Origin: a virus | DNA length: 42,846 nt | Virus record (IMG/VR): IMGVR_UViG_3300031951_000379 | Coordinates: 1 to 42,846 of that record | Reading direction: 5' to 3' (one strand) | Part shown: in pieces, positions 1-42,657 of the stretch | Position numbering within the stretch: position 1 is the stretch's first letter | How the letters are laid out: every line of letters begins with the position of its first letter | Program-made: the position numbers and the translations under genes | Notes under the pieces: generated by a model | Told to the model about the DNA's origin: nothing | What the model saw: only the letters and a program-made list of their open reading frames with translations | The model's database searches: none

Positions 1-1
1 C

Positions 2-229
2 GTGAGAGATTTTCCGAATTTTCTTCGGTCCGATATTTGCTCGGCCCGTTCGGGTTTTGGTCGGCCTAACAGAAGCCGAACAGCCAGACTGGCCGGCGGT
101 CCGGTCCGGGTCGGGGGCGGGCTCGGGCTCGGGCTCGGGCGCCGGGGGCGGCATCCATCACGCGCACGCACGCGCGGGCCTCGACTCGGAACGAAGCACC
201 ATCCGATAATTTGGTTCGCGCCTACTTGA
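2..229 (+). CDS. Possible small basic protein in the leader (doubtful)
   Basis: A 75-codon arginine- and glycine-rich reading frame that starts with GTG and ends at TGA. It is unlike any family I recognise. Its only support is that the diverged right copy (42242-42445) keeps the same frame: the 24-base length difference is exactly eight codons, and the single-base indel falls after the stop. In the right copy an AAGGGG sequence sits just before the GTG. The low-complexity Gly-Leu-Gly-Leu stretch comes from the microsatellite. It may equally be a chance open frame in GC-rich non-coding DNA. Confidence 0.25.
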   Translation: MRDFPNFLRSDICSARSGFGRPNRSRTARLAGGPVRVGGGLGLGLGRRGRHPSRARTRGPRLGTKHHPIIWFAPT

Positions 230-440
230 CGGGTACTTGATTGGCGCGCCATGCCCGGCAATCCGACGTGCCGAATGCGCGATCCAACAATTTTCTTTCG
301 ACCGTAACTCACGCGCACGCATACGCTTGCGCGAATACGGACCGAATTCGTTGGAGAATCTATCATGTAGGGGCTTGCATCGGTCGATATAGACTGTAGA
401 TTCCCACTATCGCGGCCAAGCCGCAGAAACGGAGCCACCT
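230..440 (+). promoter_or_regulatory. Leader and control region before the rightward early genes
   Basis: No gene is seen here. It contains two TACTTGA direct repeats (about 223-239), the element AATTTTCTTTCGA at 289-301 that recurs at three other intergenic places, an eight-base palindrome CGAATTCG at 343-350, and a weak sigma70-like pair TTGCAT (375-380), 16-base spacer, TAGATT (397-402). All of these are kept in the right copy. The GGAGCCACCT ribosome site at 431-440 directly precedes the first start codon. Which of these is the working promoter cannot be decided by eye. Confidence 0.45.
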
Positions 441-1115
441 ATGAGGACAGTGCAAGTCTACGCATACACGTTCGGAGACTTGATCCGGGAGCATGCGGCG
501 GGGAACGCCTCCGCGGCGGCGGTCGATCGGGCGCGCGAGTATCTGCGCCATTGGGCCGACGACGATTGGGCCGACGACATCATCTCGGATTGGATTGAAG
601 CGCTGGCCGACATCGGATTCCACGGCGCTGATATCCGGTGGACCGGATTCGCTTCGCAAGGCGACGGCGCATCGTTCGAGGCGAAGATCGAGGAAAGCGA
701 GCTCGTGCGCTTCGGCTGGGCCGGCGCGCGTCCCTATCCGAAGCGTCCCGATGGATCGCTCGAGGTTGACGGCGCGATTCAATGGGACCGTTGGATCTTC
801 TCGCGGATCGGCGAATGCTCGTGGGATGCGTTTGAGCGCGATTGGGTGAGCATGGCCGGCGAGGGAGATATCTCTATCCGTCTCCGGCGCGTCGATCATC
901 GCTACTCGCACGAGTGCACCGTCTCCGTCGACGTTGACGCGACGCGCGAAGAATCGGACATTCAGCGCCGCGTCCAGTCTCTCTACCGTGCCATCTGCCG
1001 CGCCATCTATGCAGACCTCGAGGCCGAGCATGAACGGCGCGAAACCGACGAGTTTCTTTGCAACCTTTCCGCGCACCATATCGTTGAATTCGACGATCGC
1101 GGACGCACCATCTGA
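441..1115 (+). CDS. Conserved phage protein with SQGDGASF motif (function unknown)
   Basis: This 224-residue protein starts at ATG behind GGAGCCACCT. The N-terminus (VQVYAYTFGDL) followed by a helix-rich segment rich in Trp and Asp, then DIRWTGFASQGDGASFEAKI at about residues 68-87, matches a widespread phage family whose members read 'FDELS...' then 'SGFxSQGDGASF'. Some relatives carry the label 'antitoxin', which I do not consider established. The C-terminal half is charged and helical with no known domain. It is the first well-supported gene of the rightward operon and 15 bases separate it from the next. The duplicated start at the right end encodes nearly the same protein. Confidence 0.85.
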   Translation: MRTVQVYAYTFGDLIREHAAGNASAAAVDRAREYLRHWADDDWADDIISDWIEALADIGFHGADIRWTGFASQGDGASFEAKIEESELVRFGWAGARPYPKRPDGSLEVDGAIQWDRWIFSRIGECSWDAFERDWVSMAGEGDISIRLRRVDHRYSHECTVSVDVDATREESDIQRRVQSLYRAICRAIYADLEAEHERRETDEFLCNLSAHHIVEFDDRGRTI

Positions 1116-2728: not shown

Positions 2729-2823
2729 TCTCCGTATTCGATATCGCGTGGCTTGTCGCCGCGCTCGTGGCATTCACAATCGGCGCGCTTGCGCCAGTCT
2801 GGAGCGACAATGACAGGGAGTGA
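2725..2823 (+). CDS. Tiny single-pass membrane protein
   Basis: 32 residues with one hydrophobic segment (residues about 7-26, IAWLVAALVAFTIGALAPVW) and a short acidic tail. It starts in an ATGA overlap with the preceding gene. Its size and position in the early region are compatible with a small membrane-active early protein, but no family is recognised. Confidence 0.5.
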   Translation: MISVFDIAWLVAALVAFTIGALAPVWSDNDRE

Positions 2824-3073
2824 CCGAAACCGACCGACGAAGAGAACGCATCTGCAATCGGTCTGCATCGCCGCGAGGCATGGCGTTGACCGCAGGCTCC
2901 GTATTCTCGGGCGAAACTGGACATGGCTCTCCGAGCGCATGGAATCGCGCGGCATCGCGTCCCCGGCCCTTGTGCAGCAATGGAAGCGGGGCCGCATCCA
3001 GCAGATCGGATGCGGCGTCTATCTGGCGATCCTTGACGAGCTCGCCGCTGCCGAGAGGGGAGGGGAGCAGTGA
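2810..3073 (+). CDS. Small basic protein, possible helix-turn-helix regulator
   Basis: 87 residues; ATG at 2810 follows GGAGCGACA and overlaps the previous gene by 14 bases. The middle (LRILGRNWTWLSERMESRGIASPALVQQWKRGR) has the layout of a short Cro/XRE-type fold, where a tryptophan after the second helix contacts DNA, followed by a conserved-looking 'QQIGCGVYLAILDEL' helix. The assignment rests on pattern only. It lies next to a second, clearer helix-turn-helix gene and could be part of a genetic switch. Confidence 0.6.
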   Translation: MTGSDRNRPTKRTHLQSVCIAARHGVDRRLRILGRNWTWLSERMESRGIASPALVQQWKRGRIQQIGCGVYLAILDELAAAERGGEQ

Positions 3074-3393
3074 GAGGGCAAACGATCCAAGACATCATGC
3101 GCCAGGTCGACCCCCGCGTGCGGTTCCCGATCGGGCATGGCATCGTCTCTGCGGCCCGGGACATAGCCGGCATGGCGAGGGTTCCCGAGTGCGACAACGC
3201 GCCGATCTACGCCGAGTATGAGGACGAGCGCGATCTCGTCATCATCGGCATCGCGCGCTCGGAGGATTCTCCGGTCGATGCGAAGGAATGGCTCGAGATG
3301 CAGCTCGCATATCCAGTCCTGCGCTCGATCGACCGGGTGGACCTGTTCGGAAACATGCTCGAGGGAGGGGATTCCGATGCCGCGCAGTGCTGA
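3070..3393 (+). CDS. Hypothetical protein
   Basis: 107 residues starting at GTG in a GTGA overlap. It has a basic N-terminus with DIMRQVDPRVRFPIGHGIVSAAR, then acidic and hydrophobic stretches (YEDERDLVIIGIARSED). No family recognised. It sits between two DNA-binding candidates in the early operon and overlaps the next gene by 17 bases. Confidence 0.65.
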   Translation: MRGQTIQDIMRQVDPRVRFPIGHGIVSAARDIAGMARVPECDNAPIYAEYEDERDLVIIGIARSEDSPVDAKEWLEMQLAYPVLRSIDRVDLFGNMLEGGDSDAAQC

Positions 3394-3709
3394 TCTGACG
3401 CCCATTGCCATCCGGATGCACGCGCCGCCGGCGACTCGCCGCTTTGCGTCCATCGTCGCCAAGCTCATCCAGCAGGACATTTACCGCGCGATGGTGCTGG
3501 AGGGCAGCATCGGGGCCGAGATGATCGAGGCCGCGAAGCGCGGGCGATCGCTGCGTGAGCTCTCCCGTGCCGTCGGCCTGAGCCCGACTTACCTATCCCT
3601 CGTATCGACCGGAAGGCAGCGCATAAGCGTGTCTGCCATGCACAGGCTCTTGGGCGAGTGCGATGGCGTCGAGCGGATGAGCCTGCCGAAGAGAGGGGGT
3701 CGCAAGTGA
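3377..3709 (+). CDS. Helix-turn-helix (XRE-like) regulator
   Basis: 110 residues. Start at ATG 3377, preceded by GGAGGGGATTCCG. The C-terminal half, RSLRELSRAVGLSPTYLSLV and then STGRQRISVSAMHRLLGE, is a typical XRE-family helix-turn-helix: a first helix, the 'LSRAVGLSPTYLSLV' recognition pair and a following helix. The N-terminal half (RFASIVAKLIQQDIYRAMV) is helical and could dimerise. It is immediately upstream of the serine recombinase and overlaps it (GTGA), so it may control or accompany integration. Repressor function is inferred. Confidence 0.75.
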   Translation: MPRSADLTPIAIRMHAPPATRRFASIVAKLIQQDIYRAMVLEGSIGAEMIEAAKRGRSLRELSRAVGLSPTYLSLVSTGRQRISVSAMHRLLGECDGVERMSLPKRGGRK

Positions 3710-4440
3710 AGGCCGTCATCTACCTTCGTGTCTCGACCGACGAGCAGGCGAGCAGCGGCCTCGGGCTGGAAGCCCAACGCGCCGCGTGCATGTCCAAGGT
3801 TCCGGCGGGGGCGACCGTCTCCGTATTCGCCGACGAGGGCGTGTCGGGATCAACGGCCATTGCCGAGCGAGAGGGGTTGCCGCAAGCCCTCGAGGCGCTT
3901 GGGTCCGGCGATGTCCTCATCGTGGCGAAGCGCGACCGGATCGCCCGAGACTACATGATGGCCGGCTGGGTTGATCTAGAGGTGGCGCGACGGAAGGCAC
4001 GCTTGGTTTCCGCCGCCGGCGAGGGGACAGACTCGGACGATCCGATGTCTCGCGTGATGCGCGTGATCGTCGACGCATTCGCGCAGTACGAGCGCGACAT
4101 GATCCGGGCGCGCACAAAGGCCGCGCTCTCCGCAAAGAGAGCCCGGGGCGAGAAGACCGGCGGGGCCGTTCCGTTCGGATATCGGGTCTGCGGAGTCGAG
4201 ATCCGGGACGATGGAACGAAGCGCAAGCTCTTGGTTCCCGACGCCGGCGAGCAGGAAGCCATCCGCCGCGCGCGCGCCCTCCATGCCGAAGGTCTAGGCT
4301 ACCGGGCGATCTCGGAGCGACTGGCCTCGGAGGGCATCCGCGGACGCGACTGCTCGAGACTGGCGCACACGACGATCAAGCGCATCCTCGGGTCAGGCCG
4401 AGAAGCGCTTTCCGCAGTCGGGGCATCGGATGTAGCGTAG
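3706..4440 (+). CDS. Serine recombinase (resolvase/integrase family)
   Basis: 244 residues from GTG at 3706, chosen because it gives the canonical N-terminus VKAVIYLRVSTDEQ and a GTGA overlap. Ser10 in YLRVST is the catalytic nucleophile; AKRDRIARD at about 74-82 and the long E-helix (about 110-140, FAQYERDMIRARTKAAL) complete the resolvase domain. A short 'recombinase' domain follows (GAVPFGYRV, then EGLGYRAISERLASEGIR and a terminal helix). It lacks the large zinc-ribbon and coiled-coil arm of large serine integrases. It could integrate the phage or resolve multimers. The 3' end overlaps the oppositely transcribed winged-helix gene by 48 bases. Confidence 0.9.
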   Translation: MKAVIYLRVSTDEQASSGLGLEAQRAACMSKVPAGATVSVFADEGVSGSTAIAEREGLPQALEALGSGDVLIVAKRDRIARDYMMAGWVDLEVARRKARLVSAAGEGTDSDDPMSRVMRVIVDAFAQYERDMIRARTKAALSAKRARGEKTGGAVPFGYRVCGVEIRDDGTKRKLLVPDAGEQEAIRRARALHAEGLGYRAISERLASEGIRGRDCSRLAHTTIKRILGSGREALSAVGASDVA

Positions 4441-4662
4441 GGCGGTCGCCGGAGGCTTCAAGGCCGATCGACCGGCCTCTGTCATCCTGTAGTCGCCCTG
4501 CGCGTTCTTCGACAGGTAGCCGAGTACGACCAGGCGCTTGCACGCGGCGTTCACCGTCGATCGGTTCCGCCCGAGCTCGTGCGCGATGTCCGACTGCGTG
4601 ACGTGTGGCGTCCGGTCGTACCGGACGAGGATTTCCCGAAGGACCGAAGTGAACCTAGCCAT
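4393..4662 (-). CDS. Winged helix-turn-helix protein with terminal CxxC
   Basis: 89 residues. The layout (VTQSDIAHELGRNRSTVNAACKRLVVLGYLSKN then GDYRMTEAGRSAL) is that of an MarR/ArsR-like winged helix: two helices, the recognition helix RSTVNAACKRL and a wing. The end, RYIRCPDCGKRFSA, carries one CxxC pair, perhaps half of a zinc site. The ribosome site GGAGA lies eight bases upstream in GCGAATACGGAGAGACAC. It is the last gene of the leftward early operon and its 3' end is antisense to the recombinase 3' end, so the two transcripts can interfere. Confidence 0.75.
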   Translation of the reverse strand: MARFTSVLREILVRYDRTPHVTQSDIAHELGRNRSTVNAACKRLVVLGYLSKNAQGDYRMTEAGRSALKPPATALRYIRCPDCGKRFSA

Positions 4663-5113
4663 GTGTCTCTCCGTATTCGCTGACCGTGATTACCGCGCGC
4701 GGCGCTTCGCCGGCGTTCGCATAGAGCTTCATCTGCTCGCCGTGGAACACGATGGAATCGTTTATCAACACGCCGGCGTTCTCGAGGGCGTCCGCGACGG
4801 CCTTCTCGAGATTGTCCTTGTCGGGCTTGGCGATGTGGGGAACGTCGATGTGCCCGATCGTCTTCTTGGTCATCAGACGGGCTGGCCTCGGCATCCAGAA
4901 CACGATCTGGACGCTGACGGGGCATCGGATCGGAAGCCGTTCCTTCGGGATCTCCTCGAGCGCGGCGGCTCCGACCGCCTGCTTGAAGGCGTCGGCTGTC
5001 CTCGGCGTCCAGTACCTCGGCTTGGATCTGAAGAAGGACGCGCTTGCCCGGGGCTGGGCCTTCGGGCATTCGTTGACTTGGAACGACCACTCACTTATCG
5101 GCGCCCATCTCAT
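4655..5113 (-). CDS. rusA: RusA-like Holliday junction resolvase
   Basis: 152 residues. The family signature KPDKDNLEKAVADAL (residues about 96-110) followed by a downstream Asp (GVLINDSIVFHG) matches the acidic active site of RusA-type endonucleases, which cut four-way junctions made during replication and recombination. The N-terminus CPKAQPRASASF resembles the 'PKxRPR' segment of the family. The start is ATG in an ATGA overlap with the gene ending at 5110. It probably works with the exonuclease and Bet protein of the same transcription unit, to clear branches before packaging. Confidence 0.88.
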   Translation of the reverse strand: MRWAPISEWSFQVNECPKAQPRASASFFRSKPRYWTPRTADAFKQAVGAAALEEIPKERLPIRCPVSVQIVFWMPRPARLMTKKTIGHIDVPHIAKPDKDNLEKAVADALENAGVLINDSIVFHGEQMKLYANAGEAPRAVITVSEYGETHG

Positions 5114-5279
5114 ACTTGCCCTCCAGCCGGCGGATCTTCCGCTCCTGCGCCTCGAGATGCCTCCGCTGCCTGATGATCTCCTTGACGAGAATCGCCGTCA
5201 GCGCCGGCTTCAGCGATCTTCCCGTCTCCACCGCGGTCATCGCCGCCGCGATCACCCGCGTCATTCGTTCCTCGTCCAT
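5091..5279 (-). CDS. Small coiled-coil protein overlapping two other frames
   Basis: 62 residues, beginning at ATG 5279 eight bases behind a good ribosome site (GGAGAAGG). The sequence is regular amphipathic helix: RVIAAAMTAVETGRSLKPAL, then an extended basic coiled coil (EIIRQRRHLEAQERKIRRLE). It overlaps the C-terminal 170 bases of the gene at 5110-5652 in another frame and the first 23 bases of the resolvase. Its composition looks more protein-like than the overlapping frame, so it may be the real gene here. Confidence 0.6.
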   Translation of the reverse strand: MDEERMTRVIAAAMTAVETGRSLKPALTAILVKEIIRQRRHLEAQERKIRRLEGKYEMGADK

Positions 5280-5652
5280 GATCCTTCTCCGTATTCGCGC
5301 GCGCCCTCTGGGTTGAAACGATCTTCTTGATCCGCGCGGCCACCTCGGCATCGACCTGACCGGAGATGCTTGTGGGCTTCCCTGCGTCCAAGCGTTCGAT
5401 CTTGTCTAGTTCGACGGCGAGAGCCCTGTTGTCCGACACGAGGCCGCGCAGGATCTCCGCGGCCTTCATGGCGTCCCTGTACCGTCCGGTTTCCTCGGCG
5501 ATCTCCATGAGGCGCATGACTCGCTCGGCCAGCTTCTCGATGCCGTCCGGCATGAGGAACGGCTTCACCGCGCCGTCCCGGATCATTCGCTGGTAGATGG
5601 AGAGGTCGTCCCGTCCTTCGGGGAGGAAAAGTCGGACAGGGCGGGAAGCCAT
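5110..5652 (-). CDS. Hypothetical protein (C-terminal part doubtful)
   Basis: 180 residues from ATG 5652, which has AAGGAG six bases upstream. The first ~110 residues look genuine (SRPVRLFLPEGRDDLSIYQR, then a helical region ending in VAARIKKIVSTQ). The last ~65 residues are Gly, Asp, Arg and Ala rich and look like the shadow of the overlapping small gene. However, the stop makes an ATGA overlap with the resolvase start, as real neighbours do here. It also overlaps the previous gene by 70 bases. A frameshifted or shorter product is possible. Confidence 0.55.
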   Translation of the reverse strand: MASRPVRLFLPEGRDDLSIYQRMIRDGAVKPFLMPDGIEKLAERVMRLMEIAEETGRYRDAMKAAEILRGLVSDNRALAVELDKIERLDAGKPTSISGQVDAEVAARIKKIVSTQRARANTEKDHGRGTNDAGDRGGDDRGGDGKIAEAGADGDSRQGDHQAAEASRGAGAEDPPAGGQV

Positions 5653-5855
5653 ACCCATCTCCTTTGCTCCGTTCCCCTCCTCGTCGATCGGCTTGTCCGC
5701 ATCTCGACGATCGGATGCCCGAGCTGCATCAGATACCACACCGCTCCGAGGCACTTCGCCCCGAACTTGACGCGGCTGATCTCCATGTCGATCTCCCCCG
5801 CCGTCGCGAGGTAGTGCAGAACCTCGAGATCGCGAGGAGTTTCCCTGCCAGTCAA
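5583..5855 (-). CDS. Hypothetical protein, TTG start proposed
   Basis: 90 residues if translation begins at TTG 5855, which overlaps the upstream stop as TTGA; longer in-frame starts inside the upstream gene exist. The core (RDLEVLHYLATAGEIDMEISRVKFGAKCLGAVWYLMQLGHPI in two helices and a turn) followed by RRGTEQRRWVWLP looks like a small winged-helix or regulatory domain, with the basic, Trp-rich part in the position of a wing. No family can be named. The C-terminus overlaps the next gene by 70 bases. Confidence 0.5.
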   Translation of the reverse strand: MTGRETPRDLEVLHYLATAGEIDMEISRVKFGAKCLGAVWYLMQLGHPIVEMRTSRSTRRGTEQRRWVWLPALSDFSSPKDGTTSPSTSE

Positions 5856-6712
5856 TTTGACGCTTGCGGGCCATTCAAATTCCTCCGGCTTCTTGAACCT
5901 GTGAGCTGTTCCCGCCACTCTTTCATAGATCCACCGTGATTCAGTACCTCCCGTGCGTCCTTCATCCCCATCGGGGGGAGGAGCATCCGGACGGAGCGGG
6001 CCGATCCACGGAGCGTCCTTGTCAACTCTTGGGCGCCTTTCACACCAGGCCCATCGTTGTCCGCGACCACGAGCACGTCCATTCCTGCCGTCCATCGTCT
6101 GATCTCCTGTTCGCTGCCCATGCAGCTCGGCCTTCCGATTGCGTTGAGTCCCATCTCGATCATGGCGGCGGTGTCGGTCGGACCCTCCACGATCCAGACC
6201 TCACCGATACCCCGGGTGCGACCGATCGGGATGAACAAACCGGACCTCGAGCCCTTGATCGCGAACTTCGATCCGTTGTCGAACCGGGTTCGGAATCCGA
6301 CAATCTCCTCCCGGTCGTTCCTCATCGGAAACGTCCATGCGGAGCCGTTCCATCCCGTCCCCAATCGCTCGAGCGATTCAAGCGACAGGCCGAGCGACAT
6401 CGCGAGCAATCCTAGCCGGGGCGCTCCTTGGCGCACGAACCGCGGCTGCATCAGGTCGGCTCCCTCGAGCGACGGAACCGCCTTCTCGGGGTCTTTCGAC
6501 ACCTTGAACGCGGGTACATCTCCTCCGGTCGAGTGAAGCCAGCCGGCGCTTCCGATCTTCCGCTTGCCTTCGGTCCTCGGGCAGATCGCAAGGCCGCGGC
6601 ACTCATCGACCAGACACCAAGAATCGTGTCCGCACACCGGGCACAACCTGCCCCGGCAAGCCCTCTTTCCGTGGAACACGACGGTTCCGGTGGTCTGGTC
6701 CGAAAGGATCAC
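5852..6712 (-). CDS. Zinc-ribbon and Toprim protein (primase-like)
   Basis: 286 residues. The N-terminus has a zinc-ribbon (CPVCGHDSWCLVDECRGLAICPR in pieces, residues about 24-46), as in DnaG-type primases. A Toprim domain follows: VWIVEGPTDTAAM supplies the glutamate and VLVVADNDGPG the acidic pair, then LLPPMGMKDAREVL. There is no DnaB-like helicase domain and the primase core between the two domains seems reduced. It may prime replication or serve as a zinc-ribbon/Toprim nuclease-like factor. ATGA overlap with the methyltransferase. Confidence 0.82.
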   Translation of the reverse strand: MILSDQTTGTVVFHGKRACRGRLCPVCGHDSWCLVDECRGLAICPRTEGKRKIGSAGWLHSTGGDVPAFKVSKDPEKAVPSLEGADLMQPRFVRQGAPRLGLLAMSLGLSLESLERLGTGWNGSAWTFPMRNDREEIVGFRTRFDNGSKFAIKGSRSGLFIPIGRTRGIGEVWIVEGPTDTAAMIEMGLNAIGRPSCMGSEQEIRRWTAGMDVLVVADNDGPGVKGAQELTRTLRGSARSVRMLLPPMGMKDAREVLNHGGSMKEWREQLTGSRSRRNLNGPQASN

Positions 6713-7935
6713 GCCTTGGTCCTCTTGATGTCGAAAAGCGCGGGGTCGCCAGCCACCTTCGCGATCCGCCGTCGCGCAATCTCCGCGTATTCGGCCTCTC
6801 GCTCGATGCCGACAAAGCGGAATCCCTCAAGAACGGCGCCGCGTCCCGTCGATCCGCTGCCCGCGAACGGGTCGAGGACAAGGCCGTTCGGCGGCGTGAC
6901 GAGACGGCACAGGTAGCGCATGAGTTCGGTGGGCTTCACCGTGGGGTGGTGGTTGCGGCGAGGAATGTCTACGACAGGCTTCCCGGTCTTTGGGTTGATA
7001 GCGAGCCCTTCAGCACCTATAAGTACGGTCTTCGCCTCCAACCCCTCACACCCATCGTCCCTATCCCGCTTCCTGGCCTTGGCGCAGTAGAAGAAGCGCG
7101 CGGCGTCGTTGAGCAGCCCCACCACCTCCGCGCTGCCATCATGGATCAGGTTCGCGGGCCAGCGGCCTGCGGGGTGGGGGTCAACCCGTTGCCCGTCATC
7201 GCTCGGCGTCCAGCCATCGTCGTTCATGCGCCCGAGCGCGTTTGCTCCGCGCGTCGTGGTCGGCGCAAGCGTGCCCACTCTGCACCCGTCGATGTTCAGC
7301 GCGCCCGTTCCATGCTGCATCACATTGGCAGCCACCGTGCCGACGAGCGGCTTGCGGGCGACGATGATCGGCTCGACTGATGGCTTCAGTGCGGTTCCCC
7401 AGCCCTTCATGTCGCCGCGAAGGTTCAACCCCTTTGGGAATCCAGAACCATACACCCACATGATGCAATCGCGAATCTCCCAACCCGCGTCTTCTATTGC
7501 AGAGGCAAGCCGATGGAATGTTCTCGTAGCGCCAAATGCGAGCATGTGCGTTCCCGGCTTTGCTACGCGGATCGCTTCGCGCGCCCAACTTTCGCACCAT
7601 GCTTGAAATGCTGCGTTATCGTTGTCGGCGTACCCGCGTGAATGCGTGCCTTTTTCGTGCCAGTTTGCGGATACATGACCGAGCATCGACTTGCCGCCGT
7701 GCTTTGGATCTAACCGAGCGGCATTTCCAACAACTGAAAGGCAGTCAGAACAACAGGTGAAGCCTTCGCAAGCGTCGTCGTTTCCGCATTCGATGCAGAT
7801 ATGGTCGAATGTATCCCACTTCTTCCCCATGAACGACAGGCCGTACGGCGGGTCGGTCACGATGGCGTCCACGCTGTCCGCGTCCATGCCGCGCATCACT
7901 TCGAGGCAGTCGCCTTGTATCACTTCATGCGTCAT
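6709..7935 (-). CDS. DNA methyltransferase (beta-class, N4/N6 type)
   Basis: 408 residues from ATG 7935 (ATGA overlap). TDPPYG at residues 27-32 is the catalytic motif and DPFAGSGSTG at about 355-364 the AdoMet-binding motif; catalytic-before-binding order is the beta class, which methylates exocyclic amines of adenine or cytosine. Right after the DPPY motif there is an inserted cysteine cluster (CIECGNDDACEGFTCC then SDC, residues about 46-65), unusual and probably zinc-binding. No restriction endonuclease is adjacent, so it is an orphan, likely to protect phage DNA from host restriction. Confidence 0.9.
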   Translation of the reverse strand: MTHEVIQGDCLEVMRGMDADSVDAIVTDPPYGLSFMGKKWDTFDHICIECGNDDACEGFTCCSDCLSVVGNAARLDPKHGGKSMLGHVSANWHEKGTHSRGYADNDNAAFQAWCESWAREAIRVAKPGTHMLAFGATRTFHRLASAIEDAGWEIRDCIMWVYGSGFPKGLNLRGDMKGWGTALKPSVEPIIVARKPLVGTVAANVMQHGTGALNIDGCRVGTLAPTTTRGANALGRMNDDGWTPSDDGQRVDPHPAGRWPANLIHDGSAEVVGLLNDAARFFYCAKARKRDRDDGCEGLEAKTVLIGAEGLAINPKTGKPVVDIPRRNHHPTVKPTELMRYLCRLVTPPNGLVLDPFAGSGSTGRGAVLEGFRFVGIEREAEYAEIARRRIAKVAGDPALFDIKRTKA

Positions 7936-8129
7936 GCCTTGGTCCTCGGATTCTTTCTCTCTTCGGCGATCTTTGAATGCCACCTGATCGAATCGACGAT
8001 CCATTGGATCGCAGCGACCTCATTCGAGGTGACGGGTTGGAACCGTGCCGATATCGAATCAAGTCCGATGCGGACGCTCTTGCAGAACGATGGCTTGTTC
8101 CTGCGCTGGATCTTCTTGGAATCGCTCAA
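7932..8129 (-). CDS. Small basic hypothetical protein, TTG start proposed
   Basis: 65 residues. The only start that fits the coupling pattern is TTG at 8129, overlapping the previous stop (TTGA). The sequence is basic (SDSKKIQRRNKPSF) with a helical end (AAIQWIVDSIRWHSKIAEERK). Stop and next start overlap as ATGA. No family recognised. Confidence 0.5.
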   Translation of the reverse strand: MSDSKKIQRRNKPSFCKSVRIGLDSISARFQPVTSNEVAAIQWIVDSIRWHSKIAEERKNPRTKA

Positions 8130-8320
8130 CGACGCACCGCCTTCCTCATGTCTTCGATCGTGGTCAGCCATTCGACGGGAACGGTGAAGATCCAAGCGCC
8201 CTGCACGATCTTGCCCGACTTGTCGATCGGCTCGATGAGGACGCACTCGCGTCCCGCCGTCGTCTCATTGACCGTCGAGCATACCCGAGCGCGAAGGTAC
8301 ACGATGTCATCCGACTTCAT
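8126..8320 (-). CDS. Small hypothetical protein
   Basis: 64 residues, likely a small beta-rich domain (SDDIVYLRARVCSTVNETTAGRECVLIEP) ending in a helix. It overlaps the previous gene by 14 bases and the next by four. Function unknown. Confidence 0.6.
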   Translation of the reverse strand: MKSDDIVYLRARVCSTVNETTAGRECVLIEPIDKSGKIVQGAWIFTVPVEWLTTIEDMRKAVRR

Positions 8321-8510
8321 TCATCGCCTCCCAGCTCCATCCGCGAGCCTCCGCGTACTGTCGCATGGCGTCCTCGGTCGCCGCGCCGATGCTCGTCGAA
8401 GGAGCCCTCAATAGGCACAACTCAAGCCGGAGGTTCGCGATCTCGACGGCGGCACGATGCGTCTGCTCGTGATTGAAGTCCTCCATCAGCTTGATGATGT
8501 CGTCTTTCAT
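8307..8510 (-). CDS. Small helical hypothetical protein
   Basis: 67 residues, mostly helical and amphipathic (DIIKLMEDFNHEQTHRAAVEIANLRLEL). The start overlaps the zinc-finger gene stop as ATGA. No family recognised. Confidence 0.6.
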   Translation of the reverse strand: MKDDIIKLMEDFNHEQTHRAAVEIANLRLELCLLRAPSTSIGAATEDAMRQYAEARGWSWEAMNEVG

Positions 8511-8677
8511 GCGTCTGTGTCCTCCTTGTCTTGCTTGAGTTGGTTTGGCGACCGCTTGAACGGTCGGCAGTCGTAGCAGGTGTCGCGGTCATCGCGCGTC
8601 GAGTCGAACGGATCGCCGCAGACCTTGCAGACGCGGACGAATGTGCGCGGCTTGGGTGGGTCAGGCTTCCGGGCCAT
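8507..8677 (-). CDS. Small zinc-finger protein
   Basis: 56 residues from ATG 8677, which follows GGGGAGGCCGC. It carries CKVCGDPF and DTCYDCRPF, two CxxC pairs 12 residues apart, a typical treble-clef or zinc-ribbon layout, with a basic tail. Small zinc-finger proteins of this kind are common phage accessory genes and may bind nucleic acid or host proteins. It overlaps the preceding gene by 17 bases. Confidence 0.7.
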   Translation of the reverse strand: MARKPDPPKPRTFVRVCKVCGDPFDSTRDDRDTCYDCRPFKRSPNQLKQDKEDTDA

Positions 8678-8993
8678 GCGGCCTCCCCGACCACGACGCG
8701 TTGAACGCCTCCGTCTCGTCACGGATCTCCGCGATGCATCCGGCGTACCCGGCCACGTCGGTCATGTTGTCCCGCTTCGGTAGGTGCTGCTCGCGCGCGC
8801 ACTTGTCGAGGACCATGAAGATTCCCCAGTCGGCTGGCTCCAGCGGCTCGCGGAGTTTGTGCGCGAAGACCGCGTTGATCGCGCCGATAGTCCTGGCGAA
8901 GTGGTCGCGCGGGGAGCCGTAGGACTGTCCGCGTTCGCGCGTTGCGGCTGCGGCGTCTAGGAGGAGGCGTTCGCGTGGTGATTCACTCGGCAT
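8661..8993 (-). CDS. DUF6378-like phage protein
   Basis: 110 residues. RERGQSYGSPRDHFARTIGA, then ADWGIFMVLDKCARE and KRDNMTDVAGYAGC are the conserved blocks of this family, found in many phages with unknown role. The conserved His, Asp and Glu residues resemble all-alpha nucleotide pyrophosphatase-like helices, but catalysis is not shown. AAAGGA precedes the start. Confidence 0.8.
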   Translation of the reverse strand: MPSESPRERLLLDAAAATRERGQSYGSPRDHFARTIGAINAVFAHKLREPLEPADWGIFMVLDKCAREQHLPKRDNMTDVAGYAGCIAEIRDETEAFNASWSGRPHGPEA

Positions 8994-9093
8994 CGTCGGT
9001 CCTTTCGTCGGTTTGCTTGTCGATCATGGAGCAGAGCATTGCGATGCCCAACGCCACGAACGAGATGAACGCGGTGAGTGCGGCGAGGATCAT
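8983..9093 (-). CDS. Tiny membrane protein
   Basis: 36 residues with one hydrophobic segment (ILAALTAFISFVALGIAMLC) and a charged tail. It starts in an ATGA overlap with the preceding stop, which supports it despite its size. Function unknown. Confidence 0.5.
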   Translation of the reverse strand: MILAALTAFISFVALGIAMLCSMIDKQTDERTDDAE

Positions 9094-9308
9094 GGGTTGC
9101 GCTCCTTGAGGCTCATCAGCACCGCTGCGACGCGCTGCGGCGTGCAGATCACGGAGTCCTTCGCGTAGACCGACCGGGGGACATCGGTTTCGTTCCACTC
9201 AACCATCAGCATCTCTTCCTCGTCGCTGAACACGCAGTAGATGGCGCGGCAGTTCACGATGTTGATCGCGGCCGGCTGGTAGTCGTTGTCAAGTCCGCAT
9301 AGGAACAT
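9090..9308 (-). CDS. Small hypothetical protein
   Basis: 72 residues from ATG 9308 (TGATG overlap; a GTG one codon earlier also fits). The content, INIVNCRAIYCVFSDEEEML, MVEWNETDVPRSVYAKDSVI and a short helix, suggests a small beta-rich domain. No family recognised. Confidence 0.6.
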   Translation of the reverse strand: MFLCGLDNDYQPAAINIVNCRAIYCVFSDEEEMLMVEWNETDVPRSVYAKDSVICTPQRVAAVLMSLKERNP

Positions 9309-9898
9309 CACTCACCCCCATTCTGCACTGGACCATCGGTCGCGTTCGCGTGCGGCGCGTCCCGCATGACCCACGCGCCGACCTGCTCGCCGTTCTCGTC
9401 GATCGACCTGGTCCAGCGCCATTCGTAGCCCATCGACTCGATGGCGGCGAAGGCGACGCGCATCATGCCGACGAACTTGTCGATGCAGTCGAAGTGCTGA
9501 GGCTCCGCGCCCGACGCCTCGTAGACGCGCACGAGCTTCTCGCTTTGGTGCGTGCGGACGGCGTCGATCTTGACGAGCACGCGCTGGGTGCGGTCGAGAT
9601 CCTCGCGCGCCTCGTCGCGCTCGGCGTTTGCCTTCGCGAGGTCTGCGGTGCGCTGAGATAGCGCGACAGTGATACCGTTGAGCACCTGCTGCGTGATGTC
9701 TCGATGTTCTATCGCCGCATTGCGGTGAACCGTCATTTGGTCGAGATCAGCGGTGCGCTGCGCGACCTCGGCGGTGCGCTGCGCGAGTTCGGCGCGGAGG
9801 CGGGTGATCTCGGCGGCGGCGGTGTCGAACAGATCGCGGGAGTAGTCTCCCCGCCGCAAGTCACGCAGCCTCTGCGGGATGTCGTTGGTGTCGCTCAT
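9308..9898 (-). CDS. Coiled-coil hypothetical protein
   Basis: 196 residues. Residues about 25-110 form a long coiled coil with repeated QRTA(E/D)xxQRTADL units, which also appear as short imperfect repeats in the DNA. The C-terminal 80 residues (IDKFVGMMRVAFAAIESMGYEWRWTR) make a separate compact domain. Phage genes with such a coiled coil and tail are common, with no known role. ATGA overlap at its start. Confidence 0.65.
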   Translation of the reverse strand: MSDTNDIPQRLRDLRRGDYSRDLFDTAAAEITRLRAELAQRTAEVAQRTADLDQMTVHRNAAIEHRDITQQVLNGITVALSQRTADLAKANAERDEAREDLDRTQRVLVKIDAVRTHQSEKLVRVYEASGAEPQHFDCIDKFVGMMRVAFAAIESMGYEWRWTRSIDENGEQVGAWVMRDAPHANATDGPVQNGGE

Positions 9899-10143
9899 CG
9901 CTGCGCCTCCTTATGCCACGACACGCGGAACATCGCAACGAGCAGGTAGAGCATGACCGTGCTTCCGCCCGCCTTGAGCCCCAGCGCCCAGTTCCATCCG
10001 CCGCCGAAGCGACCAAAAAGGCGGGACTTCAACCGCCAATCGAAACTGAACTTCACGCGCCCGATCTTCCGCTCGATGCGGAGGTCTTGCTTCTCGCCAT
10101 AGAACGCCTTTACCTGCTGGTAGAACGAAGTTGTGTCGCTCAC
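9895..10143 (-). CDS. Small hypothetical protein with one hydrophobic segment
   Basis: 82 residues with a basic Trp- and Phe-rich middle (VKFSFDWRLKSRLFGRFGGGWNW) and one hydrophobic stretch near the end (STVMLYLLVAMFRVSW). It is coupled to the alanine-repeat gene by an ATGA overlap. Function unknown; membrane association is possible. Confidence 0.6.
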   Translation of the reverse strand: MSDTTSFYQQVKAFYGEKQDLRIERKIGRVKFSFDWRLKSRLFGRFGGGWNWALGLKAGGSTVMLYLLVAMFRVSWHKEAQR

Positions 10144-10673: not shown

Positions 10674-10692
10674 AGTGGCTCCTTGTTCGATG

Positions 10693-10720
10693 ATTGTATG
10701 GCAAGAATTCTTGCGGTCAA
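10693..10720 (-). promoter_or_regulatory. Promoter with palindromic operator before the alanine-repeat gene
   Basis: On the minus strand: TTGACC (10720-10715), a 16-base spacer and TACAAT (10698-10693), five of six bases of each sigma70 consensus box. The spacer holds a perfect 14-base palindrome GCAAGAATTCTTGC (10701-10714), placed where a repressor or activator would act. The -35 box overlaps the stop codon of the helicase gene. Transcription would start about 13 bases before the gene's ATG. Confidence 0.7.
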
Positions 10721-12381
10721 TGGCCTGCGGCAAGTTTCTTCGCATCTTCCAATCGACCGGACTTGACAAGATCAATGGCCGTGGATGCGGTCTTCCGGTC
10801 GAATCCCTTCGGGTCGATTCCCGCCTGACGAAGAACCCACGCCTGCTTCTCCGAAGGCTTGGACATGATCGCCTCGATGAGCTGCGATGCCCTACCCGTG
10901 TCCATGTCCTTGACCGGGATTCCGTTCCGCTCGAGCATCTGCTTCTGCTTGGCCGTCGCGGGGATATGCCTCTGCCACCACGGAACGCTCTTCGGAACGA
11001 TGCCAAGCTTCTCGAACGGGTCGATGTCCTGCGTCGAATACTTGGCCCTGCCGACGATATGGAGACGACGCTTCGCCTCCTCTGCCTTGATCCGCTCGGC
11101 CTCCGCGTGATCCAGCATCTCAAGGACATCGACCGCCTCCCCGATGCCCTTCTTCTCGCTTTGCTTCTTGGCGCGAGAAACCGTCTTCTCGTCCATGCTC
11201 CCGCCGAGAACGTCGCCGGCATGGATCAACTGGTGTCTGCCGCTGTTGCCGAGGAAGTCCAAGACCTCAACGTGGGTCTTGACGCTCGCCGCAATGGCCG
11301 CGCGCCGACCCGCCGAATCCTCAATGCCGTCAATAGTGCCCGGAAGAGTCCTCGTGCCGCGGCCAAGAACCTGCGAGTACAGGGCTCGGCTCTGCGTCGG
11401 GCGCATCATCGCAATCACCTGGACTCCGCGACCGTCAAGAGCAGGATCGTCCCAGCCCTCGGTCGCGACCGCGACGTTCACGAGATACTGGAGCTTGCCC
11501 TCGCTGAACTCGCGGAAGATTTCCCTGCGTACATCCCTCGGGGTTCCACCGTGGACGATCGCCGCCGCCCCGGATGAAATACCCGGCCTGTTGATGATCT
11601 CCGCGACCCGCTCCGCGTGCTTTACCGTCGCCGCAAAGACCAACGAGCGCCGGTCCTTCACGATCTCCACCATCGGCAGGACCATCTGCTGAAGCGACCG
11701 CTCGAGGGCTTCCTCAAGGTCGCACAGGGCGAAGTCTCCACCCGACTTCTTGCAAGCGGAAAGATCAAGTTCGTCGCATTGAACGAATCGCTGTCGGATC
11801 GGAACGAGCCACCCCTCCCTGATCCCGTCCACAACGTCGAACTGGTACGCCACGGTGTCGAAGACCATGCCGAGTGCCTTGCCGTCCAAACGGTCGGGCG
11901 TGGCCGTGACTCCGAGCATCCGCGATTCCGGATGCCTCATGTAGTGGTCGATCACGGACCGATAGGACGAACTAGTGGCGTGATGGCATTCATCGACGAT
12001 CACAAGCCACGGATGCTGATTGTCGAAGCGGTGCATCCGCTTGCGGTCGCCGCGCCCCGCATTCTGCGTCTGGATGCTCGACACCAAGACGGAGCTGCGC
12101 CCGTAGATGCCGTCCTCGTCGGATCGGTAGTCCCCCATCTCGATCGCAGACTCAAGCCCCGTGACGGACTTGATCTTGTCCGCAGCCTGCATAATCAGCT
12201 CCTCGCGGTGGGCAAGGACGATCGCCCTCCTGCCCGGAACCTCGAGGCCGCGGCGAATCACCTCGGCGAAGCAGACGGTCTTTCCGAGCCCGGTCGCAAG
12301 AACTGCCACGGTCGATCGGTTGTCGCGAAGCCTCGCGCAGATGGCGTCAACGCATTCCCGCTGGTATGGACGAAGGTTCAT
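10717..12381 (-). CDS. SF2 DEAD/DEAH-like helicase
   Basis: 554 residues, start behind GGAGCCACC. Motif I ATGLGKT (29-35), motif II DECH (130-133), GVTATPDR (motif III region), and QVLGRGTR (motif VI) identify an XPB/type I-restriction-like superfamily 2 ATPase that moves on or remodels DNA. After the two helicase lobes a ~150-residue tail contains a cluster of short helices (TAKQKQMLERNGIPVKDMD, then WVLRQAGIDPKGF) like those at the C-terminus of phage UvsW-type or similar helicases. It follows the Bet/exonuclease genes and probably supports recombination-dependent replication. Confidence 0.9.
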   Translation of the reverse strand: MNLRPYQRECVDAICARLRDNRSTVAVLATGLGKTVCFAEVIRRGLEVPGRRAIVLAHREELIMQAADKIKSVTGLESAIEMGDYRSDEDGIYGRSSVLVSSIQTQNAGRGDRKRMHRFDNQHPWLVIVDECHHATSSSYRSVIDHYMRHPESRMLGVTATPDRLDGKALGMVFDTVAYQFDVVDGIREGWLVPIRQRFVQCDELDLSACKKSGGDFALCDLEEALERSLQQMVLPMVEIVKDRRSLVFAATVKHAERVAEIINRPGISSGAAAIVHGGTPRDVRREIFREFSEGKLQYLVNVAVATEGWDDPALDGRGVQVIAMMRPTQSRALYSQVLGRGTRTLPGTIDGIEDSAGRRAAIAASVKTHVEVLDFLGNSGRHQLIHAGDVLGGSMDEKTVSRAKKQSEKKGIGEAVDVLEMLDHAEAERIKAEEAKRRLHIVGRAKYSTQDIDPFEKLGIVPKSVPWWQRHIPATAKQKQMLERNGIPVKDMDTGRASQLIEAIMSKPSEKQAWVLRQAGIDPKGFDRKTASTAIDLVKSGRLEDAKKLAAGH

Positions 12382-12399: not shown

Positions 12400-13107
12400 T
12401 CACTTCTTCAAGGCTTCCATCCGGGTCTTGTTGACCCATCCCGTGTCAAGGCACTTCACGCACCCCGATCCCCCGCAGGCGGGGCAAAGACCCGCCGGCC
12501 TCGCGGCCTTGACGTGATCCCGGGCATCCCGGAGATGCTTGAGCAGCGCACTACCGCTCGTCAGGAGCCACGCCTTCGCACTCGTCGAGATGAGGGCGTC
12601 CGCTGCGTCGAAGGCGTGGGATATGGCTTCCAGCGCGTCCTTGAACGCGGGAGCCGCAGACTTCATGTTCTGATCCCCGAGCGTCTGAAAGGAATCCTCG
12701 GGCTCTTCTTCGGCCATCCGGCTCGCGGCCTCTTTCACGTCGCGCGCCGTGACGGGTCGGCCTTCCTCCTCGGCCTTCTCGCGCGCCTCGTTCCAGACAT
12801 CCGACCGCATCTCCTCATCGACAGCAGCCAAGGCAGAAGCCTGCGCGGCGTTCTCCGGCTTCGGAGAGCCCTCCGGAAGAGAAGCGATCGCCTCGACCGC
12901 CGACATCAACTGCCGGCCTCGAGCAGCCGTGAATTCCCATCGCTCGAGGCAGTAGTCCTCGAACGTGTCGTACTGAGCCCGATACAGGCGAGATTCCCTG
13001 ATCTCGCTGAGAGCCTGACCGACCGCCACGAAGGACTTCATCCCGCGGGAAATGACATCCTCAAGGTGCTCAAGCCTGTTCTGTTCCGGAGTGGTCAACT
13101 GGCTCAT
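12400..13107 (-). CDS. ParB/KilB-like phage protein with zinc finger
   Basis: 235 residues. The N-terminus, FVAVGQALSEIRESRLYRAQ and then FEDYCLERWEFTAARGRQLM, is the widespread phage domain in which a helix-turn-helix-like block follows 'VGQAL..IRESRLYR'. The C-terminus carries CPACGGSGCVKCLDTGWV, a DnaJ-like four-cysteine zinc motif. It is thought to be a DNA-binding accessory factor; partner unknown. It has AGGAG before ATG and follows a terminator-like hairpin downstream of bet. Confidence 0.75.
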   Translation of the reverse strand: MSQLTTPEQNRLEHLEDVISRGMKSFVAVGQALSEIRESRLYRAQYDTFEDYCLERWEFTAARGRQLMSAVEAIASLPEGSPKPENAAQASALAAVDEEMRSDVWNEAREKAEEEGRPVTARDVKEAASRMAEEEPEDSFQTLGDQNMKSAAPAFKDALEAISHAFDAADALISTSAKAWLLTSGSALLKHLRDARDHVKAARPAGLCPACGGSGCVKCLDTGWVNKTRMEALKK

Positions 13108-14081: not shown

Positions 14082-14890
14082 AGTCCGACCTCCTCTCCCT
14101 TGATGGACCACTTCGGAAGCGAGATGGTCTGAACGCCTTCGTCATACCCCGGCCAGTCGTTCGTCGTCATGCAGTTCGCAAGGATCGGCAGCGCCCGAGC
14201 GACGGCAATGCGGCCCTCCTCGATGGCCTGATCGTCAAGCGAGTAGCAGGCGACGCCGTAGGGTCCGGACTTCTCGATGGCGATGAAGATAACCGTCTCA
14301 ACGTCGAACCCAGCCGCGCGCATGGCGTCGATGTACCACGCCGCCTGGACGTGATACTTGAAGTTCGCGATGGATCTCGCGAAGGCGTCGGGAGACGCGT
14401 TCTCGCAGCTCTTGATGTCGATGATGGCGCGGTGCTCGAGGCTGTAGCCGTCGATCCGAGCCTTGCACCTGACTCCGATCTGCTCCCAAACGAGAGTCAG
14501 TTCGGTTTCCGTGAGGGTCGCGACGAGTTCGTGCGCCATGAGATGCCTCATGGCCGATTCTGCCATCCCGGACACGCAGAGCATCTGATCGTAGGTCAGG
14601 ATGACCTTGCCCGGATTGGCGTCAATGAACATCTGCCAAGCCGCCCTGCCGTCCTTCGTGCGCCTGTCCACGTCCGGAGCCGTGACGTACTGCTCCTTGA
14701 ATCGCAAAGGCTCGAGGATCGCGGCATGGACCGCCTCTCCCACCACAAGCGCGTCGGATGTCTTTCCGTTCTCGAGCGAGAACTTGACGTGGGCGGGAGA
14801 GCGAAGGATCTCCTTCAACTTGCTGGCATTTGCCGCCGTCATCGAGTGATACTCGACCGATGGCATTCCCCTGACGATCTTCATTGTCAT
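14078..14890 (-). CDS. PD-(D/E)XK exonuclease, RecE/exodeoxyribonuclease VIII type
   Basis: 270 residues; ATG 14890 lies behind GGAGCCAAGC. GEAVHAAILEP (51-61) with His55, CKARIDGYS with Asp147 and AIIDIKS with Asp158 and Lys160 are the nuclease core of the DUF3799-type RecE exonuclease, followed by the QAAWYIDA helix. It degrades one strand of dsDNA ends for Bet. Longer in-frame starts upstream run into the inverted-repeat leader and are not used here. The leader includes two interleaved inverted repeats and a short open frame that ends on the start codon. Confidence 0.9.
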   Translation of the reverse strand: MTMKIVRGMPSVEYHSMTAANASKLKEILRSPAHVKFSLENGKTSDALVVGEAVHAAILEPLRFKEQYVTAPDVDRRTKDGRAAWQMFIDANPGKVILTYDQMLCVSGMAESAMRHLMAHELVATLTETELTLVWEQIGVRCKARIDGYSLEHRAIIDIKSCENASPDAFARSIANFKYHVQAAWYIDAMRAAGFDVETVIFIAIEKSGPYGVACYSLDDQAIEEGRIAVARALPILANCMTTNDWPGYDEGVQTISLPKWSIKGEEVGL

Positions 14891-14982
14891 GCTTGGCTCC
14901 AAAGGCTCCCGACAGACGCGGCCAGACAGGAGCCACCTATGAACCGGCGCGTCTGTCGGGAGCTTGTTGTCCTTGTGGTCAT
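14887..14982 (-). CDS. Possible 31-residue leader peptide before the exonuclease
   Basis: An ATG inside the first arm of an inverted repeat opens a 31-codon frame whose TGA overlaps the exonuclease ATG (ATGA). The peptide is basic then hydrophobic (MTTRTTSSRQTRRFIGG, then ending in SLWSQA). No ribosome site is evident. The arrangement, peptide crossing a strong foldable RNA and ending on the next start, suggests translation-coupled control, but coding is unproven. Confidence 0.3.
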   Translation of the reverse strand: MTTRTTSSRQTRRFIGGSCLAASVGSLWSQA

Positions 14983-14989
14983 AGGTGGC
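14905..14989. promoter_or_regulatory. Two interleaved inverted repeats (pseudoknot topology)
   Basis: Repeat A: GCTCCCGACAGACGCG at 14905-14920 pairs perfectly with 14948-14963 (16 bases). Repeat B: GCCACCTATGA at 14932-14942 pairs perfectly with 14979-14989 (11 bases). The left arm of B lies in the loop of A and its right arm lies beyond A, so the order is A, B, A', B'. In minus-strand RNA this is an H-type pseudoknot or two mutually exclusive hairpins, ending 14 bases before the exonuclease ATG. The left B arm is part of a plus-strand GGAGCCACCTATGA sequence. Confidence 0.85.
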
Positions 14990-15055
14990 GCGCGAAGCGT
15001 AGCGGCGATCCGACAACAATGCAACAGGATCGAAAGAAAATTTGCGCTTTGCTCC
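14990..15055 (-). promoter_or_regulatory. Candidate control element before the exonuclease leader
   Basis: No gene. On the minus strand it contains CGCAAATTTTCTTTCGAT (15046-15029), which recurs at 40160-40177 and, in shorter form, at 289-301 and 42506-42518. A loose sigma70-like pair TTGCAT and TACGCT, 17 bases apart, follows. A promoter for the exonuclease-Bet unit would be expected here, since the upstream gene belongs to the virion block. Confidence 0.45.
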
Positions 15056-39960: not shown

Positions 39961-40007
39961 TGCGACTTTGGTCGCACAATTCAAGCCCCAAGAGCCGAGA
40001 ACATCAA
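39961..40007 (-). promoter_or_regulatory. Probable late promoter with palindrome at the start point
   Basis: Minus strand: TTGATG (40007-40002), 17-base spacer, TTGAAT (39984-39979), each four of six consensus bases. A perfect palindrome TGCGAC-N4-GTCGCA (39961-39976) covers the expected start of transcription, about 45 bases before the terminase ATG. It is a candidate operator or a 5' hairpin in the late mRNA. Confidence 0.5.
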
Positions 40008-40680
40008 CCAAGCATGAAGCGCAGTCGAACAAAACTGCCGCACGAAGGGCATCTTCAACCCCGAGTCTCGTCCATCCATGCAACGGGAAGTTCCCGAACT
40101 GGATTTTTGCACATACGGGGGGTCAGAGAAACCGTCCCGGATTTCTGAACACCCCGAATCGCAAATTTTCTTTCGATACAAACGTGCAACAAGAGTTGCC
40201 GTTGGGTGGTTGCGGGAGGAGGAGGGTTTGTTGGGGGGGGGTGGGGGGCTTGATCGGTGTATCTACCCGTCGCCATTCGCGCGGATGGCGTATCGGATCG
40301 ACCGATCCACTACGCGGGATTGCTTCGCGCATCACGCTCGAGCGCAGGCCGGCAGCGCGTGCGCGGTCCTCTCGCTGTTCGCCCCCCTCTCTTCCCGTCC
40401 ATCGTTCCCGCGTTCCCGCCTGTCCGACTCGCGCGTCGGTTCTTCGCGTAGGATCGTAGGTGGGTTTCCAGTTCGCGCCATGTCCGGCGCGCGACTACCC
40501 CGAGCGCCTGGCATGGCGTCGGCTCGTCCCCTCTTTACGTCGCGGATTCGTTTGGAGTCTATCGGCTCGTTCGGAACGGCTGAAGACTCCCGGATAGCAA
40601 CTCGTTCGCGCTGTGTGCTACGGGAGTAGATGCTACGGATAGCCGGTTCCGGAAGTCAAGCGAGAATTTTTGCCGAGTCG
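39985..40680. other. Region without a convincing gene between late and right-end operons
   Basis: About 700 bases upstream of the late promoter. It holds CGCAAATTTTCTTTCGAT at 40160-40177, a short hairpin GCAAC-AAGA-GTTGC (40186-40199), a G-rich tract with runs of nine and six G around 40229-40251, and an imperfect inverted repeat (CTCCCG at 40587-40592 with CGGGAG at 40621-40626). Long open frames occur on both strands but have no protein-like character. It may contain the packaging site, an untranslated RNA or an origin; none can be shown. Confidence 0.6.
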
Positions 40681-40716
40681 AAAAAAGAGAAGGCCCGCGC
40701 GCGAGCGCAGGCCTTC
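40681..40716 (-). terminator. Intrinsic terminator of the right-end operon
   Basis: On the minus strand, GAAGGCC (40710-40716 side) and GGCCTTC (40689-40695 side) form a seven-base stem, continued by GCGC and GCGC around a four-base loop, followed by TTTTTT (40686-40681). It is 29 bases past the stop of the clamp-like gene. Confidence 0.88.
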
Positions 40717-40744
40717 CGTCTAACGTTCATCGAATCGGGGCCAG

Positions 40745-42234: not shown

Positions 42235-42241
42235 GGGGAAC

Positions 42242-42445: not shown

Positions 42446-42657
42446 CGGGTACTTGATCGGCGTGCCGATACCCGGCAATCCGACATGCCGAATGCGCGAT
42501 CCAACAATTTTCTTTCGAACGTAACTCACGCGCACGCCTACGCTTGCGCGAATACGGACCGAATTCGTTGGAGAATCTATCATGCTGGCGCTTGCATCGG
42601 TCGATATAGACTGTAGATTCCCACCATCGCGGCCAAGCCGCAGAATAGGAGCCACCT

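What the first reader, a model, noticed from the sequence alone, without database searches (positions are those of the whole stretch)
10693..10720. Promoter with a perfect 14-base palindrome in its spacer
TTGACC and TACAAT boxes with 16-base spacing drive the alanine-repeat gene separately from the helicase, with GCAAGAATTCTTGC between them. Such a placement suits a repressor or MerR-like activator. The candidate binders are the two helix-turn-helix proteins at 2810 and 3377 and the winged-helix protein at 4393.
Basis: partly seen in the sequence, partly recalled or inferred. Interest (0 to 1): 0.55.

Follow-up and report, generated by a model that had tools for sequence, protein, structure and literature searches.

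The report
Phage operator shared by several promoters
The small palindrome inside this viral promoter is one copy of a DNA switch that the virus and its relatives place at several of their promoters, so it very probably is where a virus-made repressor sits to keep the neighbouring genes off.

Summary
As a palindrome it is not rare (5 perfect ones of 14 bp or more in the window, about 6 expected) and occurs once in the genome. It is still real: the promoter recurs behind the helicase in related phages, and the palindrome belongs to a dyad family, TCGCAAG-AAAA-CTTGCGA, found in relatives upstream of the terminase, the exonuclease/RecT operon and the left operon. A matrix built only from relatives' sites ranks it third of 42,829 window positions (21.0 bits; next non-member 8.6). 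The other two strong sites (15030-15047, 40159-40176) are noncoding and precede operons. I read it as a repressor operator in the spacer of an accessory-gene promoter. MerR-type activation is not supported (16-bp spacer; no MerR gene found). The best-fitting binder, not shown, is gene 12400-13107: a predicted ParB/Noc-like DNA-binding fold without the ParB clamp domain. Only one relative, L022, has the dyad at this promoter, in weak form.

The parts
10715..10720 (-). -35 hexamer TTGACC; contains the TGA stop codon of the helicase
   Evidence: TTGAC in all 8 aligned sequences, window included
10699..10716 (-). operator-like dyad CCGCAAGAATTCTTGCCA (perfect 14-bp core 10701-10714) filling the promoter spacer
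   Evidence: matrix from relatives' sites 21.0 bits, rank 3 of 42,829; 1 of 200,000 random 14-bp palindromes with free flanks scores as high with the terminase-site matrix
10693..10698 (-). -10 hexamer TACAAT
   Evidence: TACAAT or TACATT in L022, L003, L004, L008 and L117
10140..10673 (-). alanine-repeat protein, 177 aa, first gene behind the promoter
   Evidence: phrog_18326, E 8e-18, unknown function
4393..10143 (-). accessory and replication genes on the same strand behind the alanine-repeat gene, many with overlapping stop/start; putative extent of the unit
   Evidence: extent inferred
10717..12381 (-). DEAD/ResIII helicase upstream
   Evidence: PF04851, PF00270, PF00271; 68-81% identical in 7 relatives
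15030..15047 (-). second strong copy of the dyad, upstream of the exonuclease/RecT leader
   Evidence: 22.0 bits
40159..40176 (-). third strong copy of the dyad, in the noncoding stretch before terminase large subunit
   Evidence: 26.2 bits; terminase PF17289
284..301 (-). degenerate copy at the left + strand operon, where G003 and G007 have strong copies
   Evidence: 8.1 bits; weak
12400..13107 (-). candidate binder: residues about 5-135 modelled as a ParB/Noc-like DNA-binding fold, then long helices and a Cys-rich C-terminus; no ParB_N domain found in the record
   Evidence: inferred role
2810..3073 (+). rival binder: small helical protein, HTH-like model
4393..4662 (-). rival binder: winged HTH with CPxC

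Best explanation
The palindrome is a repressor operator. It is one of three strong copies in this phage of a dyad (consensus TCGCAAGAAAACTTGCGA) that marks promoters or leader regions of the main transcription units of this phage group. Here the 18-bp site exactly fills the space between -35 and -10, so a bound dimer would keep RNA polymerase off the promoter of the alanine-repeat gene and the accessory genes behind it; release of the repressor opens that unit apart from the helicase operon. Shown: promoter, dyad, its family and positions. Inferred: binding, repression, extent of the unit. The most likely binder (my estimate about 0.4) is the protein of gene 12400-13107, whose model resembles ParB/Noc DNA-binding domains and whose operon itself follows a copy of the dyad.
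For: A matrix from 10 sites of relatives only ranks window 10699-10716 third of 42,829 positions (21.0 bits; the other two 26.2 and 22.0; next 8.6), reached by 1 of 200 shuffled windows. Matrices from AAAA-type sites, terminase sites or exonuclease sites alone rank it 3, 1 and 3. 1 of 200,000 random perfect 14-bp palindromes with free flanks scores as high. The dyad lies before the terminase region in 8 of 8 genomes where that region was held (window, G001, G002, G003, G004, G005, G007, G020), and abuts or lies 9 bp before a TTGAC(A/G) hexamer in 5 of 5 relatives' sites measured (G001, G003, G007, G005, G004). The reversed-pattern control gives 1 match in all 15 virus records, against 13 for the pattern. 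Window against L022: palindrome 12/14 identical while fourfold sites are 84/225 in the helicase and 17/28 in the Ala gene. No special RNA fold: z -0.27. HTH block of 12400 is the most conserved of the three candidates (22 of 33 columns invariant, against 7 of 30 and 9 of 31), as the dyad's GCAA/TTGC half-sites are nearly invariant.
Against: At this promoter the dyad is seen in one relative only, L022, where it scores 8.2 and ranks below chance-level hits; eight other close relatives have the promoter without it. L022 shows no strong copy anywhere in its partial record. G002 has one borderline copy (17.6) and the 9-kb locus of G006 none. L117 has a 17.6 hit at an unexamined place. In the window's other two sites no good sigma-70 promoter follows at once (15030: best -35 match 4 of 6). 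12/14 against 17/28 is only P 0.045. The ParB fold match (Z 8-9.5) is below what the tool calls safe for helical models and Rubisco factor Raf1 scores 10.8; no sequence family links the protein to ParB. I noticed the resemblance by eye before building the matrix.
Confidence: 0.68

Rival explanations
1. The dyad is a centromere-like, replication or packaging site bound by a ParB-like phage protein, scattered in noncoding DNA; any effect on promoters is a by-product.
For: The most widespread copy lies in the long noncoding stretch before terminase (8 of 8 held), near a conserved ACCCCC..TATGTG word seen there; the candidate binder resembles ParB/Noc DNA-binding domains.
Against: Copies abut -35 hexamers in relatives and fill a spacer here; no ParA (PF13614) and no ParB_N domain found in the record.
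Confidence: 0.15
2. The regulator is one of the reader's proteins, 4393-4662 (winged HTH) or 2810-3073 (small HTH), acting as the repressor.
For: Both are present in all 7 relatives G001, G002, G003, G004, G005, G007, G018; 4393 lies at the end of the unit behind this promoter; 2810 lies in the left operon, which has strong copies upstream in G003 and G007.
Against: Their recognition regions vary (7 of 30 and 9 of 31 columns invariant) although the half-site is nearly fixed.
Confidence: 0.35
3. MerR-like activator site that untwists the spacer.
For: A dyad between -35 and -10 is the MerR position.
Against: Spacer is 16 bp, not stretched; no MerR_1 match in the record.
Confidence: 0.03
4. Chance palindrome with no function in a real promoter.
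For: Palindromes this long are expected about 6 times; eight other relatives do without it.
Against: Its seven half-site letters match an independent family of promoter-region sites.
Confidence: 0.1

Closest known systems
KorB operator (OB) regulon of plasmid RK2
   Same: Several copies of a 16-bp operator upstream of promoters of different operons; OB-proximal sites lie 4-10 bp upstream of promoters and repress locally (PMC11790492, passages read); here copies lie 0-9 bp before -35 hexamers in relatives. The candidate binder has a ParB-type DNA-binding fold.
   Different: No ParB_N clamp domain found, no KorA-like partner sought, sequence unrelated, a phage, and here the site is inside the spacer. 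Binding not shown.
Multi-site operators of temperate phages (for example stoperators of mycobacteriophage L5; recalled)
   Same: One regulator site scattered at several transcription units of one phage.
   Different: Those are asymmetric and more numerous (recalled; the abstract of PMC1934351, seen in a search listing, says mycobacteriophage repressors bind multiple asymmetric operators); these are symmetric, three strong copies per genome.
ParB-parS and Noc-NBS
   Same: Palindromic sites and similar predicted DNA-binding fold (Z 9.5, 9.2, 8.5).
   Different: No CTPase domain and no ParA found in the record.

Membership tests
sigma-70 type promoter | -35 and -10 near consensus with 16-18 bp spacing | tested here: met
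   10 of 12 matches, spacing 16
sigma-70 type promoter | conserved in relatives while the spacer varies | tested here: met
   TTGAC in 9 of 9 close relatives, TACAAT/TACATT in 5 of 9
sigma-70 type promoter | transcript start near 10686 | not testable with these tools
   no RNA data
multi-site repressor operator | several copies of one dyad at promoters of different units | tested here: met
   three strong copies in the window, more in relatives
multi-site repressor operator | a phage protein binds it and represses | not testable with these tools
   needs binding and reporter assays
MerR-type promoter | dyad within a stretched 19-20 bp spacer (recalled) | tested here: not met
   spacer 16
MerR-type promoter | MerR-family regulator encoded | tested here: not met
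   PF13411: 0 matches in the record, found in 12 of 14 control genomes; a host MerR is not excluded
ParB family (gene 12400-13107) | ParB-type helix-turn-helix DNA-binding domain | tested here: inconclusive
   residues 5-135 align to ParB, Spo0J and Noc at Z 7-9.5; Raf1 10.8; below the safe level for helical models; no sequence match
ParB family (gene 12400-13107) | ParB_N CTPase domain | tested here: not met
   PF02195: 0 matches in the record
KorB regulon | ParB-family repressor with CTP clamp and partner KorA | tested here: not met
   no ParB_N match; KorA not sought

The most novel reading that the evidence does not exclude
A ParB/Noc-type DNA-binding domain that has lost (or never had) the CTP clamp serves as the master repressor of a whole phage group: it binds an 18-bp dyad at the exonuclease/RecT, terminase, left and accessory operons, controls its own operon, and the accessory unit is brought under it by placing the dyad in the spacer of a promoter that relatives use without it.
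Probability: 0.25. Interest if true: 0.62.

Novelty: new member of a known kind. Interest (0 to 1): 0.45.

Why it matters
These phages are known only from metagenomes: the best cultured-phage terminase matches listed are under 25% identical. The dyad gives a first map of their transcription units and a probable master regulator. It also shows how a variable accessory-gene cassette is put under the control of the core regulator by a single small site in its promoter, and it points to a testable ParB-like repressor without a clamp.

Tried and rejected
Rarity of the palindrome itself: rejected as an argument. Exact palindrome with TTGAC in viral contigs: 0 matches; looser spacer pattern: 1, the L022 record. 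Dyad abutting TTGAC in viral contigs: 2, both already known, G003 and G007. RNA hairpin or terminator: rejected (the terminator-like hit at 10711-10730 is on the other strand). A spacer motif ACCATCRAACA seen in relatives' promoters: pattern search gave few hits at up to 2 mismatches, not pursued. Ribbon-helix-helix autoregulators: the first genes behind the promoter in L003, L004, L005, L008, L118 looked like RHH proteins by eye, but Pfam gave no such match. Alanine-repeat homologues elsewhere (L021, L023-L038) do not share the promoter by eye. Sequence search of solved structures gave no useful relative for the proteins 12400 and 2810 and weak ones for 4393. Foldseek on the 2810 model: 0 matches at E 0.001 or better. 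Cultured relatives: none close. The near-identical contig G008 ends inside the helicase, so it cannot test the site.

Rows set aside: the 9 matches in MAG genomes G019 and G020 were not used to train the matrix, nor two matches in virus records (L136, 3 mismatches; L144, 2 mismatches); the terminase-only matrix used one G020 site and one site each for G001, G002, G003, G005. In one search only hits above 7 bits were listed. Only 12 records were scanned there, some held in part (G005, G006, G008, G019, G020).

Full report
What is there. The finding is exact. On the minus strand the helicase gene (10717-12381; PF04851, PF00270, PF00271) ends with TGA inside TTGACC, the -35; sixteen bases later comes TACAAT; the spacer holds GCAAGAATTCTTGC; then AAGGAG and the ATG at 10673 of a 177-aa alanine-repeat protein (phrog_18326, function unknown). 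The window is a whole IMG/VR virus record, GC 63%. The genes behind it run on the same strand to 4393, so the promoter may serve a longer accessory unit; that extent is inferred.

Is it more than chance? Not as a palindrome: 5 perfect palindromes of 14 bp or more occur, 6.1 +/- 2.5 are expected, and the exact 14-mer occurs once. Not as a promoter scan hit either (1 against 0.5). Comparison changes this. Close relatives of the helicase (68-81% identical) keep TTGAC next to the helicase stop in 9 of 9 loci read and TACAAT or TACATT in 5 of 9, although the gene that follows differs. In the ten loci of about 50% identity (L010-L019) the next gene starts at once by eye. The spacer is not conserved: only L022 (helicase 81%, same alanine gene) has GCAAGAACTCTTGT; eight others do not have the dyad.

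The dyad family. Reading the second promoter of the relatives (before the exonuclease/RecT genes) showed TCGCAAGAAAACTTGCGA directly upstream of TTGACA. The window has TCGMAAGAAAATTTGCGA at 40159 with no mismatch and at 15030 with one; 0.03 matches at up to 3 mismatches are expected. In 15 virus records the degenerate form has 13 matches at up to 3 mismatches against 1 for the reversed control. I noticed the likeness by eye, so I tested it with a matrix built only from ten sites of relatives: the finding ranks third of 42,829 positions with 21.0 bits, after 40159 (26.2) and 15030 (22.0); the next is 8.6; 1 of 200 shuffled windows has any site so high. Matrices from three different subsets rank it 3, 1 and 3, and 1 of 200,000 random 14-bp palindromes with free flanks scores as high with the terminase-site matrix. 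The alignment of 17 sites is.

Where the family sits. Before the terminase region in all eight genomes where that region was held (window, G001, G002, G003, G004, G005, G007, G020); scores run from 17.5 to 29.7, and the two lowest (G002 17.6, G020 17.5) are near the 95% point of shuffled maxima, 17.2. Before the exonuclease/RecT leader in the window and its near-identical G008, G001, G003, G007; not in G002 or G006; weakly (8.6) in G018. At the left operon in G003 and G007, degenerate (8.1) in the window. In G003, G007, G004 and G005 the dyad abuts a TTGAC(A/G) hexamer; in G001 it lies 9 bp before one. In the window at 15030 the following promoter is poor. L117 has a 17.6 hit whose place was not examined.

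Mechanism. A dyad that fills the space between -35 and -10 is most simply a repressor site. An activator of MerR type would need a stretched spacer (recalled) and a MerR protein; the spacer is 16 bp and none was found. The variable distance to the -35 at other promoters (0 or 9 bp) also suits repression. The RNA does not fold unusually (z -0.27). Against L022 the palindrome is 12/14 identical where fourfold sites are 84/225 in the helicase and 17/28 in the alanine gene; against the latter P is only 0.045, and the sharp change at the promoter could also reflect exchange of the cassette.

Which protein. The HTH protein 3377-3709 had no match in relatives, and in G001, G003, G004, G005 and G007 the gene before it is followed directly by the recombinase, so it is unlikely to be the common binder. 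Genes 2810, 4393 and 12400 occur in the relatives where their regions are held. The half-site is nearly fixed; the HTH block of 12400 is too (22 of 33 columns invariant), those of 2810 and 4393 are not (7 of 30, 9 of 31; blocks chosen by me). The model of 12400 (mean pLDDT 77.8) aligns over residues 5-135 to Caulobacter ParB (Z 9.5), Spo0J-parS (9.2) and Noc (8.5), but also to Raf1 (10.8), and the tool warns that such Z values can be a common helical arrangement. No sequence family supports it, and no ParB_N or ParA was found in the record. Its operon lies behind the 15030 copy, which would make it self-controlled.

Comparison. It works most like OB-proximal control by KorB of plasmid RK2 (PMC11790492, passages read), but it is not filed as a member: the clamp domain is missing and binding is unknown. 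Two other paper searches were read only as listings; I make no claim about what is not in print.

Verdict. A real promoter with a real operator, ordinary in kind, that opens up the regulation of an uncultured phage group.

Noticed in passing
window 14888-14993 (-); L159:6259-6367, L149:6566-6685, L152:8348-8479, L155:6487-6587 (-), L157:5955-6051, L007:1016-1156: The leader of the exonuclease/RecT genes has two interleaved stems (A-B-A'-B', an H-type pseudoknot) in 7 of 7 phages, 8-11 and 13-16 Watson-Crick pairs, with changing sequence in the long stem (10 of 2100 shuffles have interleaved stems of 8 or more). Its A' arm GGTGGCTCC is complementary to the Shine-Dalgarno word GGAGCCA(CC) seen before several genes of the phage. 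No Rfam match reaches its gathering score.
   Followed up: partly
window 2729, 3818, 4668, 5286 (+); also 332 and 42549 (-) for the 9-mer: The 12-mer TCTCCGTATTCG occurs four times exactly on one strand within 2.6 kb, and CCGTATTCG six times against 0.24 expected; in G003 and G007 a palindromic ATACGGTCCGTATTCG lies beside the dyad of the left operon.
   Followed up: partly
window 1-629 and 42241-42846: The two ends are 92% identical direct repeats with indels, so not a clean assembly overlap.
   Followed up: no
L125:8629-8949 and 11978-12376: The L022 record holds two copies of the alanine-repeat gene in its accessory region.
   Followed up: no
window 39992-40744; matching stretches of G001, G002, G004, G005, G020: A long noncoding stretch before terminase with a shared ACCCCC..TATGTG word, possibly a packaging or origin site.
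   Followed up: no
L002, L003, L004, L008 promoters: Promoters of relatives share an extended TTGACA.CC.TC.AAC just after the -35.
   Followed up: partly
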